In this document: positions 7,040 through 64,000 of the stretch, piece after piece
Layout of the letters: each line of letters starts with the position of its first letter
How positions within the stretch are numbered: position 1 is the first letter of the stretch
Assembly: GCA_017938485.1 (NCBI GenBank)
Contig: JAGBBM010000127.1
Location: forward strand, 34,257 to 98,256
Source of the DNA: Lachnospiraceae bacterium
GTDB taxonomy: Bacteria > Bacillota > Clostridia > Lachnospirales > Lachnospiraceae
Length of the DNA: 64,000 bases
Direction of reading: 5' to 3'
Made by a program: the position numbers and the translations under genes
Notes under the pieces: model-generated
Databases searched by the model: none
Told to the model about the DNA's origin: nothing
The model's input: the letters and a program-made list of their open reading frames with translations, nothing else

Positions 7040-8122
7040 ATGAGCACTAAATTTACATCTGAGTTAAAAGAAGGTATGGTCACCCTTGAGGATACTTATT
7101 CCACCAAGGGTCAGATGATTTTGCCCAAAAATACAATAATTACAAGAAGCATAATTACAAAGCTTATTGCTAATTCTGTTCTTATGGTAGAAGTTGAAGA
7201 CGAACTTGTATCTGTTGAAACAGATATAGATCCTATGTCCAACTTTACCATTGACGAGGAAGCTATTGTCAATACTGTAGAGTACAAGAAGTTCAAACGA
7301 CGTTATGATAAAAATATAGATGTTATGTCAGAACACCTAAACGATATAGTACATAAAAATGCTCCAATTGAAGTGGACACTATGTTGAATAACGCTCTAA
7401 ACATAATTGATGCAACAGATTCACCACTTAGCATTTTTACTATGCTTTCCACATTGAAGAATTACGATGACAGCACATTTAATCACTCTCTCAATGTAGC
7501 TCTTATCTGCAATATCTTCGGAAAATGGTTAGAACTTCCAGAGGAGGAAGTAAAGGTTCTTACCTCCTGCGGATTATTTCACGATATAGGAAAATTGCTT
7601 ATACCTGACCACATTATCAAAAAGCCTGGTAAACTTACTGATGAGGAATTTAAGATTGTAAAAACTCATTCACGCAAGGGTTATGAACTTTTAAAAGCCA
7701 GAAATGCGGACATTCGTATACAGTACGCTGCTCTTATGCATCATGAAAAATGTGATGGTTCAGGATATCCTTTGGGTCTTACGGAAGATAGAATTGATAA
7801 ATTCGCTCAAATTGTCACTATTGCTGATATTTACGAAGCTATGACAGCTAAAAGAGTTTACAGAGAACCGCTTAGTCCATTTACAGTTATTCATAATTTC
7901 GAAGAAAATGGACTCAAAAAATATAACCCTAAGTTCTTACTTACTTTCCTTGAGCGCGTTGTAAACAGCTACATAAACTGCAAAGTAAAGCTTAGTAATG
8001 GTGAGGAAGGGGACATTGTCTACATCAACAAAGTCAGCCTTTCAAAACCCCTCATAAAAACAAAAGATTCTTTCATAGATTTATCCAAAGAATATACCGT
8101 ATCCATTGAGAGTATATTATAA
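7040..8122 (+). CDS. HD-GYP domain phosphodiesterase
   Basis: Probable cyclic di-GMP phosphodiesterase. The 360-residue protein has an N-terminal region of about 130 residues of the kind found in front of many HD-GYP domains (no receiver or PAS motif seen). An HD-GYP domain at about 140-310 follows, with HDIGK near residue 181, HHEKCDGSGYP near 233-243 and DIYEAMTAKRVYR near 264-276, so the metal ligands and the GYP signature are intact. A short C-terminal beta-rich tail ends the chain. It is monocistronic, with its own promoter, and converges on scpB. Its stop codon abuts the giant inverted repeat. A link to motility or biofilm switching is inferred from the family. Confidence 0.92.
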   Translation: MSTKFTSELKEGMVTLEDTYSTKGQMILPKNTIITRSIITKLIANSVLMVEVEDELVSVETDIDPMSNFTIDEEAIVNTVEYKKFKRRYDKNIDVMSEHLNDIVHKNAPIEVDTMLNNALNIIDATDSPLSIFTMLSTLKNYDDSTFNHSLNVALICNIFGKWLELPEEEVKVLTSCGLFHDIGKLLIPDHIIKKPGKLTDEEFKIVKTHSRKGYELLKARNADIRIQYAALMHHEKCDGSGYPLGLTEDRIDKFAQIVTIADIYEAMTAKRVYREPLSPFTVIHNFEENGLKKYNPKFLLTFLERVVNSYINCKVKLSNGEEGDIVYINKVSLSKPLIKTKDSFIDLSKEYTVSIESIL

Positions 8123-8124
8123 AC

Positions 8125-8719
8125 GGGCTTTTCAAAAATCTTTTTTATATTCCCTAATACATAGGGTGGATAATCTGGTATTATAATGTCTGGTTAAGAG
8201 ATTTTGGAAATATCTATTATTTTGTGGGTCAGGTTTTTGATTAGCACCCCACAGTATAAACTCATGTAAGGACTGGAATATATAGCATCCAGAGGTTTTT
8301 ATTTGTCCTTTAAGAAATTTATAGAAATATCAATAAATAATGGGCTCGGGATGAAACACCTTGAGTTGCAACTGTTTGAGTAATGAGAATAAGAAATGGC
8401 GTAGAATTTGATAAGTATTTTTACTTAATCATAATTCTACGCCATTTCTTATCTGATTACGAGTTTTGCAACTCAAGGGTCGTATTAAAACATCCCGAGC
8501 CCTATTTATTAGATATTTCAAAAATTTCTTAACAAGACAAATAAAAATCTCTGGATGCTTATATTCCTAGTCCGTACATTCAGACAAATACTTTAGGGGT
8601 GCATTTACCTGACCCACTGCAATAATGATATTTGCACAAAATCATCTTAAAGGACATTATAATACCAGATTATCCATCCTATGTACTATGGAATATATAT
8701 AAAGATTTGGGGAAAGCCC
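8125..8719. repeat. Giant imperfect inverted repeat (about 595 nt foldback), function unknown
   Basis: The interval between the stop codons of the HD-GYP gene and scpB is almost entirely one foldback. The left arm (8125-8417) and right arm (8422-8719) are largely complementary along their length, with small mismatches and internal loops. Exact paired blocks include 8125-8131 with 8713-8719 (GGGCTTT), 8167-8190 with 8653-8676 (24 bp), 8342-8353 with 8491-8502 (12 bp), 8359-8370 with 8467-8478 (12 bp) and 8391-8408 with 8433-8450 (18 bp). The tip is AAGTA-TTTT-TACTT. No coding frame of substance lies inside. It could be a foldback or MITE-like element, or the template of a very large hairpin RNA; I cannot name a family. 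The base of the right arm is followed by a T-tract and could also end transcription of the HD-GYP gene. Confidence 0.9.
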
Positions 8720-8722
8720 TTT

Positions 8723-9298
8723 TTACACCTCAATCTTAAGCTGTGCTTCTTCCATAGCCTCCTGCTTAAAGTCCTCTATCTTGTCAGGGGATATAATTGG
8801 AAGCTCATCCATAGAAGTTACACCAAAACTTCTAAGGAAATCTTCAGTAGTTCCAAAAAGTATCGGTCTACCTATAGCGTCAAGTCTTCCAACCTCCATA
8901 ATAAGATTATATTCTACTAATTTATTTATGGCATGAACACAGGATACACCTCTTATAGATTCAATCTCCTGTCTTGTAACCGGCTGCTTGTAGGCAACAA
9001 TAGAAAGAGTCTCCATAAGAGAATCTGTAAGATTATGCTTTTTAGGCATATTTACAACCTTGGTAAGAACATCATAATACTCATTCTTTGTACATAACTG
9101 ATAGGCAGATTCTAATTTAACAATTCTGATTCCCCTATCTTCTTTGTCATACTTATCCATCATGTTTTGTATAATCTTATCAAGGGTAGGCTCATCTATT
9201 TCCAACACCTTAGCCAATTCCTTTAAAGGAACAGAATCACCTATTGAAAACAATATAGCCTCCACCGCAGCTTCTGTTTTTAAAATACTATCTTCCAT
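8723..9298 (-). CDS. scpB: Segregation and condensation protein B
   Basis: Kleisin-associated winged-helix protein that with ScpA and SMC forms the bacterial condensin on the chromosome. At 191 aa it is the usual ScpB length. Two tandem winged-helix parts can be read: residues 5-80, and 85-165 with the conserved SLMETLSIVAYKQPVTRQEIESIRGV stretch and a GRPILFGTTEDFLRSFG beta-wing. It starts 18 nt after scpA, with ribosome site AGGAGG. The order scpA-scpB is the standard Firmicutes pair. Its 3' end faces the giant inverted repeat. Confidence 0.95.
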   Translation of the reverse strand: MEDSILKTEAAVEAILFSIGDSVPLKELAKVLEIDEPTLDKIIQNMMDKYDKEDRGIRIVKLESAYQLCTKNEYYDVLTKVVNMPKKHNLTDSLMETLSIVAYKQPVTRQEIESIRGVSCVHAINKLVEYNLIMEVGRLDAIGRPILFGTTEDFLRSFGVTSMDELPIISPDKIEDFKQEAMEEAQLKIEV

Positions 9299-45650: not shown

Positions 45651-45706
45651 ATAAACTCCTCATACTATATTTTTCAATATTATGTGGAATATATATTTTT
45701 TTATTC

Positions 45707-45734
45707 AAAAAAGGCACTTGCTATTGCAAGTGCC
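45707..45734 (-). terminator. Intrinsic terminator after the Ser/Thr kinase gene
   Basis: Perfect palindrome GGCACTTG...CAAGTGCC (45713-45734), 6-nt loop, six T on the minus-strand 3' side. Confidence 0.92.
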
Positions 45735-45758
45735 TGAAATTAGTAAAGAAATAAATTA

Positions 45759-47846
45759 TTAATATGTTATTGACTCTAAAATTCCATAATACAAATCTAA
45801 ATTAGATATATAGGTAATATATTCTACATAAATCCACATAGAATCTTCACAAATAAGGAATGCTCGGCCTTCCCATCCATCACTTGTATCAAGTACCCAC
45901 TCAGTTCCAGTATGACCATTATATGTCATCTCATAAGAATAAATCTGATCACCGTAAGAAACCTTTAATTCATCATCCATCATCTCACATACTTCAGCTT
46001 CATCATAGTTTCCAGGAACCACACCAAAAAGGAACATCGACTCATCATTATAAACATATATCTTTGAGTCTTCATCACCACTTTCATCATCAACAAAACC
46101 TTCCGGTACCGTATAGCTAACATTATGTATTTGGTGACGTTCAAACGGAAGCACTAAGGAATCAACAAATTCATCATATCCTGTCAATTCACCTGAATAT
46201 GATACATACTCCATATATATCAATGTATCACCCTCACAGAACACTAATGATCTTCCAAGATATGTACCTTCTGCTGAATCTGTACACCACTCAATTCCAG
46301 AATATCCATTATAAGTTACTGGATATGAATATATATGGTTACCATATGTTGCAGCAATTTCTTCGTCAAACATACTTATCGCATCTGACGTTGTTAAAGT
46401 GTTGGCATCATCAACAGCTATAACAAATGCAATAGCATCATCATGAACATAACTTATAGTTGTGCTGTCCTCTTTTTCCAAGTAGAATCCTTCAGGAATA
46501 ACAAAGCTAACACCACATATCTCATCTCTTTCCTCGCCGATAACATCTTCAGTATTATCAGGCTCTTCTGTATCTGGATCTTCTGTATCTAGATCCTCTG
46601 TGATTTCTTCAGTAGTCTCTTTTTCAGTTGTTGTAGGTTCTTCTGTAGTTGTATCTTCGGTAGTTATCTTTTCTGTGGTTGTGTCATCATCTTTTTTGTC
46701 TTTACCCTTTAAGCCAAAAATCAATGCTACAACAATGGCAATAACTGCAACAACACCGATAATTATACCTACCACAAGTCCTGTTTTTTTCTTCTGAACA
46801 TAACCTGTATTATTATTCTCATAACCTGTGGTATATGATACAGGGGCAGGCTGTGATATATATTCCCCGCCATATTGGTTACCAAATAATTCCGCAAACA
46901 TCTGACTCACAGTTTGATATCTATCCTCAGCTCTAACTGCTAGTCCTTTTCGTAATACATAATCTAATCTTTGTGATATGCTGATTCCTAAATCAGCAGG
47001 TGATATATATCCATCACTTTCCATACGCTCTATGCTATTTTGAGGCGTCTTTCCCGTAAGCATCTTGTACATTGTAGCACAAATACTATATACATCTGTC
47101 CACGGACCCTGCCTTCCATTAGAATAATATTGTTCAACAGGGGCATATCCATGCTTTAACATAACCGTATATGTCTTATCATCTGTAGAAGCCTGTAATC
47201 TAGCCGCACCAAAATCAATAAGCTTAATACGATTCTTGTTGTCTACCATTATATTATCAGGACTAATATCTCTGTGAAGCATACCAGAATTATGAATCTG
47301 TGCCAAAGATGCAAGCACTGGTTTCATAAGTGCCAACACAACATTCTCTTCCAATCTTCCACCAGAATTTTTAAGGTATTCTTTCAAAGTAATACCATTA
47401 ATATACTCCATTACAATATATCCGGTACCATTTTCATAGAAAAAGTCTTTTACTGATACAATACCCTGCAAGTCATAAAATTTTGAAAGAGTTCTTGCTT
47501 CTTCAACATATTTAGTCAAACCTTTATCGTATACTTCTTTTTTTGACGCAGTAGGGTTGACCTTTGTCATAGAAACAGTTTTGTCACGTACAGCCAAAGC
47601 TTCTGGAAAATACTCCTTAATGGCAATATAGGTCTGGAGATTCATATCCCAACCTATATAAGTAATTCCAAAACCACCAACACCTATAACACGACCAACC
47701 ATATACTTGTTCTGTAATACAGTAAATGGTTCAAGAGAATTGCTAATCTCTTCATACCCCGCAACATCAAAATTGCAGTATGGGCAACAATCCGCATTAC
47801 CAACTTGTTGCATACAATTAGGACATCTTTCGTACTTATTTTGCAT
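45759..47846 (-). CDS. Zinc-ribbon transmembrane Ser/Thr protein kinase with repeated outer domain
   Basis: 695 aa. A zinc ribbon at the N-terminus (C8-x2-C11, C21-x2-C24) leads into a Hanks kinase domain (about 48-322): GVGGFG loop, Lys77 in AIKEY, HRDISPDN (Asp193), DFG (211-213) and GYAPVEQYY activation segment. One membrane span lies at about 356-378. The outer part begins with a Thr/Glu-rich linker (about 388-435) and then two copies of a domain of about 115 residues, each starting near VPEGF and ending with a WI/LIYxEYxxY segment. The same domain forms the neighbouring lipoprotein (48012-48575). Start at 47846 is chosen for AGAGG; the open frame reaches 47879. Probably senses an extracellular signal through the repeats; targets unknown. 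Confidence 0.9.
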   Translation of the reverse strand: MQNKYERCPNCMQQVGNADCCPYCNFDVAGYEEISNSLEPFTVLQNKYMVGRVIGVGGFGITYIGWDMNLQTYIAIKEYFPEALAVRDKTVSMTKVNPTASKKEVYDKGLTKYVEEARTLSKFYDLQGIVSVKDFFYENGTGYIVMEYINGITLKEYLKNSGGRLEENVVLALMKPVLASLAQIHNSGMLHRDISPDNIMVDNKNRIKLIDFGAARLQASTDDKTYTVMLKHGYAPVEQYYSNGRQGPWTDVYSICATMYKMLTGKTPQNSIERMESDGYISPADLGISISQRLDYVLRKGLAVRAEDRYQTVSQMFAELFGNQYGGEYISQPAPVSYTTGYENNNTGYVQKKKTGLVVGIIIGVVAVIAIVVALIFGLKGKDKKDDDTTTEKITTEDTTTEEPTTTEKETTEEITEDLDTEDPDTEEPDNTEDVIGEERDEICGVSFVIPEGFYLEKEDSTTISYVHDDAIAFVIAVDDANTLTTSDAISMFDEEIAATYGNHIYSYPVTYNGYSGIEWCTDSAEGTYLGRSLVFCEGDTLIYMEYVSYSGELTGYDEFVDSLVLPFERHQIHNVSYTVPEGFVDDESGDEDSKIYVYNDESMFLFGVVPGNYDEAEVCEMMDDELKVSYGDQIYSYEMTYNGHTGTEWVLDTSDGWEGRAFLICEDSMWIYVEYITYISNLDLYYGILESITY

Positions 47847-53369: not shown

Positions 53370-53400
53370 AATACAAATTCTCCTTAAAAAAATATTTTTT

Positions 53401-53494
53401 CATTAAGACGCCGAAACAACTGAAAATACCACTTCAAACCTAAAAGAGTTACCTTAAAAATGATATTTTCAGTAGTCTCGGTTGGGTCTTAATG
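53401..53494 (-). promoter_or_regulatory. Long hairpin in the pnp leader
   Basis: CATTAAGAC (53401-53409) pairs with GTCTTAATG (53486-53494), and ACTGAAAATA (53419-53428) with TATTTTCAGT (53464-53473), with partial pairing between and an apical loop of about 35 nt. It ends just before the pnp ribosome site AAGGAGA. Resembles in position the RNase III-sensitive pnp leader of Escherichia coli; no sequence relation is claimed. It is not followed by a T-run in a terminator position. Confidence 0.6.
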
Positions 53495-53582
53495 CAATCT
53501 TAGTTATTATATCATTTCTAAAGTAACTCTTCAAGAAAAATATATGTATTCTCTGTAAAAAAGAAACATTTTTTGTATTAAA

Positions 53583-62627: not shown

Positions 62628-63872
62628 ATGAAAACTTTAGCAATCATAGCTGAATATAATCCATTTCACAATGGTCATCTTCACCATTTGAGAGAATCTC
62701 TTGCTGCCACTAAGGCACATAGAGCCATATCAATTATGAGTGGAAACTTTTTGCAGCGTGGAGAGCCCGCCATAATAGACAAGTACGAAAGAGCTTCCAT
62801 GTGTGTAAAATCCGGTGTAGATTTAGCCTTGGAGCTTCCATTTCCTTATGCAACAGGAAGTGCTATGGATTTTTCTATGGGTGCCGTAAGTATTTTAAAC
62901 AAATTAAACTTTGTTGATTTTCTTTGCTTTGGGGCAGAAACGCCTGACATTAATCTTTTTTACAAAGTATGTGATGTGATTTTATCAGAACCTGATTCCT
63001 ATAAAAACACACTAAAAGATTATCTTTCAAAGGGATTATCCTACCCTGCCGCCAGAGAAAAAGCAATTATCAATCACTTTAGGGATTTGGATATAGCTGA
63101 ATTTATCAGTTCTCCTAACAACATACTCGGTTTAGAATATGTTATGGCCATAATGCGAACTAATTCATCTATAAAGCCTATTGTCATCCCAAGAAAGCAA
63201 GCTGGCTATCACGATAAAAACATCTACGAAAGCATCAGTTCTGCTTCTGCACTACGAGAAGCTGTAAAAAATAGTACCAATCCCTTGGATGCAATTAAAA
63301 AAGATATTCCCCTTGACACCTATTCCATATTGGAATCAGCATATCAAGCAAAATGGCCTATTTATGCTGAATGGCTCACCCCTTTCCTGCAATCAGCCCT
63401 TATGTCAAACTCGAACTTTTCACACATATGCGACATAAGTGAAAAATTATCCAATAAGATACTTAAACTTGCTCCTAACACAAGCTATAGTCTTATGTTA
63501 GAAGCATTGAAATCCAAGGATTTAACTTCCACACGAATATGTAGAAGTATTATACATCTGATTATAGGTTATACCGAGTCCCTTAGAACGGACTTTATAT
63601 CAAAAGATTATGCTTTTTATGCTAATATACTTGGACTAAAAAAAGAAAGCTCTTCTCTACTCAAAGAGATACAGAAAAGCTCTCTTATACCTTTAATCAA
63701 TAAAAAGGCTAATTTTGATAAAATCATTTCAGAACACAACATAGACCATCATCTTGCAAAAAGTATGTGGGAACTTGATACCAAGGCTACAGATTTATAC
63801 AACTGCCTTATTTATAACCAATATGGTTATACCAACAAAAATGATTACACCACAAAGCTTCCCATTATATAA
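62628..63872 (+). CDS. tmcAL: tRNA(Met) cytidine acetate ligase (TmcAL/YlbM family)
   Basis: ATP-dependent enzyme that forms N4-acetylcytidine at the wobble base of elongator tRNA(Met). Nucleotidyltransferase HIGH-type motif NPFHNGHLHHL (about 11-21), MSGNFLQRGEPAIIDKYERASMCVKSGVDLALELPFPYATGSAM (about 38-81) and the downstream GLEYVMAI block match TmcAL (old name DUF795/YlbM). 414 aa is typical. Monocistronic, divergent from recA, and followed by a long hairpin at 63879-63972. Confidence 0.92.
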   Translation: MKTLAIIAEYNPFHNGHLHHLRESLAATKAHRAISIMSGNFLQRGEPAIIDKYERASMCVKSGVDLALELPFPYATGSAMDFSMGAVSILNKLNFVDFLCFGAETPDINLFYKVCDVILSEPDSYKNTLKDYLSKGLSYPAAREKAIINHFRDLDIAEFISSPNNILGLEYVMAIMRTNSSIKPIVIPRKQAGYHDKNIYESISSASALREAVKNSTNPLDAIKKDIPLDTYSILESAYQAKWPIYAEWLTPFLQSALMSNSNFSHICDISEKLSNKILKLAPNTSYSLMLEALKSKDLTSTRICRSIIHLIIGYTESLRTDFISKDYAFYANILGLKKESSSLLKEIQKSSLIPLINKKANFDKIISEHNIDHHLAKSMWELDTKATDLYNCLIYNQYGYTNKNDYTTKLPII

Positions 63873-63878
63873 ACAATC

Positions 63879-63972
63879 ATAAAATCAAAACAGGAACCAT
63901 AATATATATTGATTAAGCTTATTTATTAGCCTATGATTATATTATCTATATGTCTTCTTGTTTTGATTTTAT
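63879..63972. repeat. Long foldback after tmcAL
   Basis: The 18-nt arm at 63879-63896 pairs with 63955-63972 with one mismatch, enclosing about 58 nt of AT-rich sequence with further self-complementarity. T-rich sequence follows at 63967-63976, so it may be an unusual large terminator. The remainder to 64000 shows no gene. Confidence 0.55.
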
Positions 63973-64000
63973 TTGTTACAAACAGTGAATTAGTCATATC

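What the first reader, a model, noticed from the sequence alone, without database searches (positions are those of the whole stretch)
8125..8719. Giant near-complete palindrome filling the gap between two convergent genes
About 595 nt folds back on itself from one stop codon to the other. The arms of roughly 295 nt match along their whole length, with exact blocks up to 24 bp and small internal loops. Nothing coding is inside. This is far bigger than a terminator and lacks a transposase. Options are a non-autonomous foldback (MITE-like) element that landed between convergent genes, or a DNA template for a very large, rod-like RNA that could be processed to double-stranded RNA by RNase III. I know no named family that fits.
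Basis: partly seen in the sequence, partly recalled or inferred. Interest (0 to 1): 0.9.

Follow-up and report, generated by a model that had tools for sequence, protein, structure and literature searches.

The report
Giant modular hairpin elements between genes
The 600-base palindrome is real and belongs to a family of giant hairpins found at many places in this gut bacterium and its relatives, mostly where two genes end head to head; they keep the same small internal loops while the rest of each hairpin changes freely but stays paired, and they fit no family we could find described.

Summary
In detail: the window folds on itself from stop codon to stop codon (8121-8724; 245 pairs; a fold of 8100-8750 gives -318 kcal/mol against -129 for shuffles). 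It is not a one-off. At least 27 sites in this genome carry giant hairpins ("rods") or pieces of them (five cut by contig ends); 53 rods examined measure 214-793 nt. Relatives have them too, including a single-contig genome and other genera. Rods share internal-loop modules (UGUUUGAG facing CGAGUUU, and others), while helices are copy-specific but paired: 680 two-sided against 28 one-sided changes on 50 aligned matches, and 2.5% G-U pairs against 14.5% in RNase P RNA of the same genus. Rods favour convergent gene junctions (34 of 51, against 37 of 362 gene pairs) and usually lack the separate terminator found there. Empty sites exist in relatives; one junction can carry different rods in different species; arms sometimes mirror a neighbour's coding end. 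Most likely these are giant, modular, non-autonomous foldback elements that land on convergent terminators, with helices kept paired by arm-to-arm copying of DNA. No mobiliser was found. An RNA role as a shared 3' end is open. Rfam, phage and plasmid searches found no relative.

The parts
8121..8724 (.). whole giant hairpin (rod)
8125..8133 (+). left half of the G+C-rich base stem (GGGCTTTTC), just after the HD-gene stop codon
   Evidence: sequence; pairing
8711..8724 (+). right half of the base stem plus T-run (GGAAAGCCC TTTTT): terminator-like closing stem of the whole rod
   Evidence: sequence; pairing
8134..8193 (+). outer arm, left; pairs with 8651-8710. The outermost part (to about 8163) has no strong match elsewhere in G000; the inner part matches other rods
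   Evidence: arm alignment; blastn coverage starts at query 44-47
8651..8710 (+). outer arm, right
8194..8221 (+). outer AAUAUC-bulge module, left strand; partner 8621-8650
   Evidence: same module in other rods
8621..8650 (+). outer AAUAUC-bulge module, right strand
8253..8274 (+). outer internal-loop module AGUAUAAACUCAUGUAAGGACU, left strand; resembles the reverse complement of the inner UGUUUGAG module (by eye)
   Evidence: comparison with L021, L022, L028
8569..8592 (+). outer internal-loop module, right strand (AGUCCGUACAUUCAGACAAAUACU)
8324..8331 (+). inner AAUAUC module (GAAATATC), left strand; pairs with 8512-8519, one-base bulge on the right strand
8512..8519 (+). inner AAUAUC module, right strand (GATATTTC)
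8348..8358 (+). GGGAUG + asymmetric loop, left strand
8480..8496 (+). asymmetric loop + CAUCCC, right strand
8370..8380 (+). core internal loop, left strand AACUGUUUGAG; UGUUUGAG invariant in 12 of 12 aligned rods
8460..8466 (+). core internal loop, right strand CGAGUUU, invariant in 12 of 12 aligned rods
8389..8452 (+). apical hairpin; 20-bp exact stem 8389-8408 / 8433-8452, its sequence found nowhere else in the window
7040..8122 (+). left neighbour, HD-domain ORF (360 aa; name by motif, recalled), convergent
   Evidence: pair conserved in the genus
8723..9298 (-). right neighbour, ORF read as ScpB (191 aa; name recalled)

Best explanation
The palindrome is one copy of a dispersed family of giant, modular, non-autonomous foldback elements ('rods') of Lachnospiraceae. 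Shown: rods are long hairpins built of recurring internal-loop modules separated by copy-specific helices that stay Watson-Crick paired; this genome has at least 27 sites; rods favour convergent gene junctions and mostly lack the separate terminator found there otherwise; relatives have empty sites; some junctions carry rods in several species that do not align with each other; arms of some rods mirror the coding 3' end of a neighbour. Inferred: a core lands on, or replaces, the bidirectional terminator between two convergent genes; unknown machinery recognises the looped hairpin; arms are lengthened and repaired by snap-back (template-switch) synthesis during replication, which copies one arm onto the other, so that only the loops, under selection, keep their sequence. 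Once in place the rod serves as the shared 3' end of both transcripts.
For: Copies: at least 27 sites in G000, 10 by blastn, 11 by covariance model, 6 by palindrome census; five are cut by contig ends. Copies seen whole fold on themselves. Single-contig genome G006: 5 palindromes of 161-415 nt in an even 400-kb sample. Ten type C copies in G000 share a core of 373-377 nt (pairwise identity 85-98%, median 88%) while 70 alignment columns on either side have a median of 38%. Loops: on A3, 14 of 29 unpaired but 7 of 86 paired columns are at least 90% conserved. Covariation: 93% of 2050 cells paired, 680 two-sided changes, slid controls 31-45% paired. DNA-level pairing: 28 one-sided changes and 2.5% G-U, against 14.5% G-U and 151 two-sided to 82 one-sided in RNase P. 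Site choice: 34 of 51 convergent against 37 of 362 pairs, p 7e-18. Terminator: none found on either side in 27 of 34 convergent rods; in a G000 sample 0 of 7 rod junctions but 21 of 30 rod-free junctions have one by the same test. Empty sites: HD-ScpB gap of 14-55 nt in seven relatives; G008 lacks the rod that G025 has between two inverted terminator hairpins; a 605-nt G000 junction is 2, 46 and 42 nt in G005, G010 and G031. Mirrored flank: 53 nt of the dnaB coding end pair 87% with the non-coding opposite arm, z 9.9; z is 5 or more in 16 of the 25 rods (of 32 entered) that overlap a coding end by 15 nt or more. Precedent for the arm mechanism: PMC8794818 (abstract and opening text).
Against: No mobiliser: no Y1 transposase in G000, G010, G005 or G031 and no RVT_1 in G000 (87.6% complete); other transposases were not searched. 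No constant ends or target duplication. At two sites the outer arms are absent from the empty relatives, so flank mirroring does not explain all arms. Rods at the same junction in several species may be old vertical sites. On A1 loops are on average no more conserved than helices (0.78 against 0.79; 20 of 52 against 36 of 107 invariant columns). G-U exceeds A-C among isolated mismatches 33 to 17 and 47 to 12 in A3, which hints at selection on one RNA strand. RNase P is far less diverged (89% mean identity against 52%), so the two-sided to one-sided ratio is not like for like. The terminator test allows loops of 3-12 nt only; by eye the arms of five of the 27 rods (L088, L089, L090, L091, L111) hold a terminator-like hairpin with a longer loop, and the test missed the hairpin in the G005 gap. 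One model match (L160) shows no palindrome.
Confidence: 0.57

Rival explanations
1. A structured RNA: the rod is the transcribed shared 3' region of both convergent genes. It acts as a giant bidirectional terminator or RNase III / RNA-binding-protein target, and its conserved loops (tandem G-A, kink-turn-like by recall) are protein or tertiary-contact sites. Outer and inner units carry the loop on opposite strands, so either transcript would show one sense module.
For: Covarying helices, an invariant core loop. Rods mostly stand where a terminator would be and sit at convergent ends. The base stem with T-run at 8711-8724 looks like a terminator. G-U exceeds A-C.
Against: Only 2.5% G-U pairs against 14.5% in RNase P. 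No Rfam relative. Rods at the same junction in two species do not align end to end in six of seven pairs compared. In 3 of 34 convergent rods a terminator on each side lies between gene and core, so transcription into the core may be rare there.
Confidence: 0.3
2. A folded single-stranded DNA recombination site, working like an integron attC: loops of the extruded hairpin are read by a recombinase, helix sequence is free.
For: Conserved unpaired bases with free helix sequence on A3, nearly pure Watson-Crick pairing, dispersal and empty sites.
Against: Rods are 214-793 nt; attC sites are far shorter (recalled). No integrase was looked for and no cassette was noticed beside the rods.
Confidence: 0.1
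3. Purely mutational palindrome: a terminator hairpin that grew by template switching, without mobility or function.
For: Mirrored coding ends, two-sided changes, terminator positions.
Against: The same loop modules occur at unrelated sites, in other species and another genus, and type C cores are 85-98% identical over about 375 nt at ten G000 sites with unlike flanks. Local growth cannot give that.
Confidence: 0.04
4. Assembly artefact (chimeric inverted contig ends).
For: The genome is a 137-contig assembly and five of the 27 rod sites lie at contig ends.
Against: Arms differ by about 22%, not 0%; rods recur in independent assemblies and palindromes in a single-contig genome.
Confidence: 0.01

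Closest known systems
Repetitive extragenic palindromes (REP/BIME) with RAYT / Y1 transposases
   Same: Dispersed, intergenic, palindromic, non-coding, many copies
   Different: REPs are 20-40 bp (start of the abstract of PMC3733652, search listing); rods are 214-793 nt with free stems, and no Y1 transposase is found in G000, G010, G005, G031, G015 or G029
MITEs / foldback elements (recalled)
   Same: Non-coding, multi-copy, long inverted arms, empty sites in relatives
   Different: No conserved terminal repeats in most rods, no constant target duplication, no parent transposase identified; arms differ from copy to copy
Integron attC sites (recalled)
   Same: Conserved unpaired bases on a folded hairpin whose stem sequence is free
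   Different: Much larger, no cassette noticed, modular and nested; integrase not searched
Large structured bacterial RNAs (OLE, ROOL, GOLLD; names from the listing, features recalled)
   Same: Hundreds of nt with conserved structural motifs
   Different: Those are multi-branched RNA genes (recalled); rods are almost unbranched, many per genome, G-U poor, without Rfam match
Template-switch (quasipalindrome) mutation
   Same: Makes and repairs perfect stems in one event, with two-sided changes (PMC8794818, abstract and opening text)
   Different: A mutation process, not an element; does not explain shared loop modules or dispersal
Coding palindromes of Nematomorpha mitochondria (PMC6649704, abstract)
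   Same: Long inverted repeats running through coding sequence
   Different: Perfect repeats inside mitochondrial genes of worms; the abstract reports no loop modules

Membership tests
MITE / foldback transposable element | many dispersed copies | tested here: met
   27 sites in G000
MITE / foldback transposable element | empty site in a relative | tested here: met
MITE / foldback transposable element | conserved terminal inverted repeats | tested here: not met
   outer arms differ from copy to copy in the rods compared; most of the G029, G015, G001 and G036 rods shown do share end sequence
MITE / foldback transposable element | target-site duplication of constant length | tested here: inconclusive
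   17/18-nt imperfect direct repeat at one site (G025 against G008); none evident at the second G000 site; other sites not examined
REP / RAYT system | Y1 (TnpA-REP) transposase in the genome | tested here: not met
   PF01797 in 8 of 37 genus genomes, none in G000, G010, G005, G031, G015 or G029
retro-element (SINE-like) | reverse transcriptase in the genome | tested here: not met
   no PF00078 match in G000, 87.6% complete; other genomes not tested
known structured RNA family | Rfam match at gathering score | tested here: not met
   0 in the window; five rod loci gave four matches, all far below gathering score (three microRNA, one flavivirus element)
structured RNA gene (any) | covarying helices with G-U intermediates | tested here: inconclusive
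   covariation strong but G-U 2.5% against 14.5%
structured RNA gene (any) | transcript | not testable with these tools
   no RNA-seq available
intrinsic terminator | short G+C-rich hairpin followed by T-run | tested here: not met
   size and internal structure exceed it; the base stem plus T-run at 8711-8724 is terminator-like, but no short local terminator was found at either end
integron attC | IntI integrase and cassette array | not tested
   no search made for an integrase

The most novel reading that the evidence does not exclude
Rods are a new class of genetic element: strand-symmetric, modular hairpins in which homologous loop units alternate between the two strands, so that whichever convergent gene is transcribed, its RNA displays at least one sense (kink-turn-like) module. 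The element colonises convergent terminators, takes over their job, acquires new locus-specific arms, including mirrored coding ends of its neighbours, and keeps its helices paired by DNA-level arm copying instead of by slow compensatory mutation.
Probability: 0.3. Interest if true: 0.95.

Novelty: new variant of a known kind. Interest (0 to 1): 0.85.

Why it matters
Long palindromes are thought to be unstable in bacteria (recalled; a match to SbcD, part of the hairpin nuclease, is present in this genome), yet this genome carries at least 27 rod sites. The family offers a natural test of how bacteria tolerate and propagate giant hairpins. It also gives a large data set for the claim that paired changes in stems can arise in one replication event rather than through compensatory mutation, which bears on how covariation is read as evidence for RNA. 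If rods act as shared 3' ends, they are a new way to separate convergent genes.

Tried and rejected
Rejected: assembly artefact (arms about 22% diverged; palindromes in single-contig G006). Lone local duplication. Phage or plasmid origin: no match of the window rod in phages or of one type C rod in plasmids (each rod was tried in one collection only); five viral-contig pattern hits, of which one locus holds a palindrome, 106 nt at another place. Of 21 loci hit by the type C pattern in genome contigs, 5 have the match inside a rod, all from SIG297 and RGIG8516; a sixth, from RGIG8516 at a contig end, shows none; in the other 15 the match lies in no palindrome, though L202 (uncultured Eubacterium) has a 234-nt palindrome elsewhere. 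IS200/REP and reverse-transcriptase routes. Loss of SbcCD as the reason for tolerance: SbcD is over the cut-off in G000, G005 and G031, which have rods, and in 13 of 37 genomes in all; not in G010, G015 or G029, which also have rods. Simple flank mirroring as the source of all arms: outer arms absent from empty relatives at two sites. Strand of a possible RNA by G-U count: only weak.

Led nowhere: first self-BLAST script failed on gap costs (repeated); six of seven pairs of rods at shared junctions did not align end to end, L040/L047 did; seven literature searches returned no description of such a family, and the one passage looked at in PMC10434271 did not bear on it.

Dropped rows: A2 left out L028 and L031 as near-duplicates; one search left out L031; one search used 28 of the 30 RNase P loci (L246 and L248, longer, left out). 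One search entered 53 rods; rods cut by contig ends, the five G006 palindromes, L182, L072 and L140:44-542 were not entered, and L158's span was merged by hand from overlapping hits. A3 contains three second-strand matches of rods already in it. The G000 census stretches were partly chosen because their contigs held known rods, so their rod density is not a genome average.

Full report
OBSERVATION. Window 8121-8724 is an imperfect palindrome that fills the gap between the stop codons of an HD-domain ORF (7040-8122, +) and an ORF read as ScpB (8723-9298, -). The arms match at 78% over their full length and the longest exact block is 24 bp. 8100-8750 as RNA folds at -318 kcal/mol, where 20 shuffles give -129 (sd 4.5); 8121-8723 alone is one rod of 245 pairs.

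A FAMILY, NOT A ONE-OFF. Blastn of the rod against the own genome found ten sites. A covariance model of the inner module (R1, built from ten sequences of A2) added eleven, and a palindrome census of 391 kb of stretches, partly chosen on contigs with known rods, added six: at least 27 sites, five of them cut by contig ends. Copies seen whole fold on themselves. R1 matches 15 of 37 genus genomes at E <= 0.001 and 19 at E <= 1; some of the weakest, such as L082 and L083, look like chance. With stricter filters it matches 4 of 392 genomes of the order at E <= 0.001: G000 and three genomes of two other genera of the family. One of these (L156) is a 588-nt rod with recognisable modules; another match (L160) shows no palindrome. 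In G006, a single-contig genome without an R1 match, an even 400-kb sample holds five palindromes of 161-415 nt with motifs related by eye. A Markov control of 400 kb gave none. Named records with the type C pattern inside rods are ruminant-gut 'Lachnospiraceae bacterium' MAGs SIG297 and RGIG8516.

ANATOMY. Rods are nearly unbranched and modular. In the window copy, from base to apex: a G+C-rich base stem with a T-run; an outer arm; an AAUAUC-bulge module; an internal-loop module; a second AAUAUC module; a GGGAUG + asymmetric loop; the core loop UGUUUGAG / CGAGUUU; and a copy-specific apical hairpin. Such modules recur in other rods around different helices. By eye, homologous units alternate strand: the outer loop module resembles the reverse complement of the inner one, and the type C core shows two such units with the loop-bearing strand swapped. 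Ten type C copies in G000 share a core of 373-377 nt at 85-98% identity (median 88%), while 70 alignment columns on either side have a median identity of 38%. The core loop (UGUUUGA / GAGUU, with tandem G-A) looks kink-turn-like to me; that comparison is recalled and untested, and type C does not fit it strictly.

COVARIATION AND ITS ODD SPECTRUM. On A1 (12 rods) 49 of 73 predicted pairs have two-sided changes. On A3 (50 model matches, three of them second-strand matches of rods already counted; alignment fitted to the model) 93% of 2050 cells are paired, 680 cells have two-sided changes, and structures slid by 1-3 columns reach only 31-45%. One-sided changes are 28 and G-U pairs 47 of 1907 (2.5%). 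In RNase P RNA of 28 genus genomes G-U makes up 14.5% of pairs, with 151 two-sided and 82 one-sided cells. The RNase P set is much less diverged (89% against 52% mean identity), so the ratio is not like for like; I expect the G-U share to depend less on that. On A3 unpaired columns are the conserved ones (14 of 29 at 90% or more, against 7 of 86 paired columns), but on A1 the means do not differ (0.78 unpaired, 0.79 paired) and only particular loops, above all the core loop, are invariant. Isolated mismatches are G-U 33, A-C 17. My reading: pairing is enforced mainly at the DNA level, by copying one arm onto the other, while key loops are held by selection. Template switching is described as able to make and keep RNA stems in PMC8794818 (abstract and opening text seen).

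WHERE RODS SIT. Of 53 rods entered, 51 have both neighbours called: 34 convergent, 15 co-directional, 2 divergent, against 37 convergent among 362 adjacent pairs in the window and G000 stretches (p 7e-18; crude ORF caller; the 37 include rod junctions). Of the 34 convergent rods 27 have no separate intrinsic terminator on either side by a simple test, 4 on one, 3 on both; shuffled ends gave 1 of 340. In the G000 sample 0 of 7 rod junctions but 21 of 30 rod-free convergent junctions have one by the same test. So the rod usually takes the terminator's place. Against this: the test takes loops of 3-12 nt only; five of the 27 rods (L088, L089, L090, L091, L111) have by eye a terminator-like hairpin with a longer loop in their arms, and the test missed the hairpin in the G005 gap.

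GAIN, LOSS, TURNOVER. The HD-ScpB junction is conserved. It is rod-free in G010, G005, G031, G009, G013, G003 and G019 (gaps of 14-55 nt) and in others, and has different, shorter rods in G025, G024 and G004. G008 lacks the rod that its near relative G025 has in the spacer between two inverted terminator hairpins, with a 17/18-nt imperfect direct repeat at the edges. A second G000 junction of 605 nt is 2, 46 and 42 nt in G005, G010 and G031; a further G005 copy of that gene pair was not resolved. Yet several junctions carry rods in two or more species (dnaB end, an ABC permease end, L012/L179, L146/L178, L140/L186, L104/L108, L149/L022/L035; matched by C-terminal peptides). In six of seven such pairs compared the rods did not align end to end; L040/L047 did. 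Either the same spots are hit repeatedly or old rods are overwritten.

ARMS THAT MIRROR GENES. Of 32 rods entered, 25 overlap a coding end by 15 nt or more, and in 16 of these the coding part pairs with its partner at z 5 or more against shuffles; the other nine lie between about 2.5 and 4.9. Hairpin limits were themselves set by pairing, which favours high z. In L028 53 nt of the dnaB coding end pair 87% with the non-coding opposite arm (z 9.9); L007, L030 and L187 are similar. In L021, L023, L146 and L188 the coding ends of both genes pair with each other (z 6.5 to 9.0). Since most of dnaB's last residues are shared with G000, the non-coding side is the likely copy. At two sites the arms are absent from empty relatives, so their source is open.

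WHAT MOVES THEM. Unknown. No Y1 transposase in G000, G010, G005, G031, G015 or G029; no reverse transcriptase domain in G000; no match of the rods tried in phages or plasmids. Other transposases and integrases were not searched. SbcD is present in G000, so absence of the hairpin nuclease does not explain tolerance.

VERDICT. A real and, by the searches made, undescribed family of giant modular foldback elements. It behaves like a non-autonomous mobile element with attC-like logic (free stems, fixed loops) and fails defining tests of MITE, REP/RAYT and known RNA families. The RNA reading is second. Literature: seven searches over an open-access library; subscription journals are largely missing, so absence from print is not proven.

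Noticed in passing
window 53387-53531: Smaller imperfect palindromes (arms of 33 and 23 nt, and a 122-nt span) lie close together here; may be a decayed or short relative.
   Followed up: partly
window 63872-63977 and 45674-45773: Two further palindromes of 100-106 nt, 68-74% self-complementary, without rod modules that I could see.
   Followed up: partly
L147 11475-11939 and 16171-16859 (G000 contig C81): Two rods flank the SbcD match; one lies at the 3' end of the 823-aa ORF next to it (read as SbcC by position only). SbcCD is the nuclease expected to attack such hairpins (recalled).
   Followed up: partly
L018 1506-1537 (G000 contig C80): A 32-nt perfect terminator-like palindrome carries the UAAGGACUGAAAUAUAUA stretch of the rods' outer module; possibly a minimal relative or seed.
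   Followed up: no
HD-ScpB junctions of G025 and G008 (L040, L042): GGAGACAGGGGACGGTTCTCTGTCTCC-like hairpins occur as an inverted pair between the convergent genes; a separate repeated terminator element.
   Followed up: no
L188 345-1130 (G005): Two different convergent genes end in FQMAGLL and WQMPEEL; their last 93 and 87 coding nt inside the rod pair at 72-77%: rods may reshape protein C-termini.
   Followed up: partly
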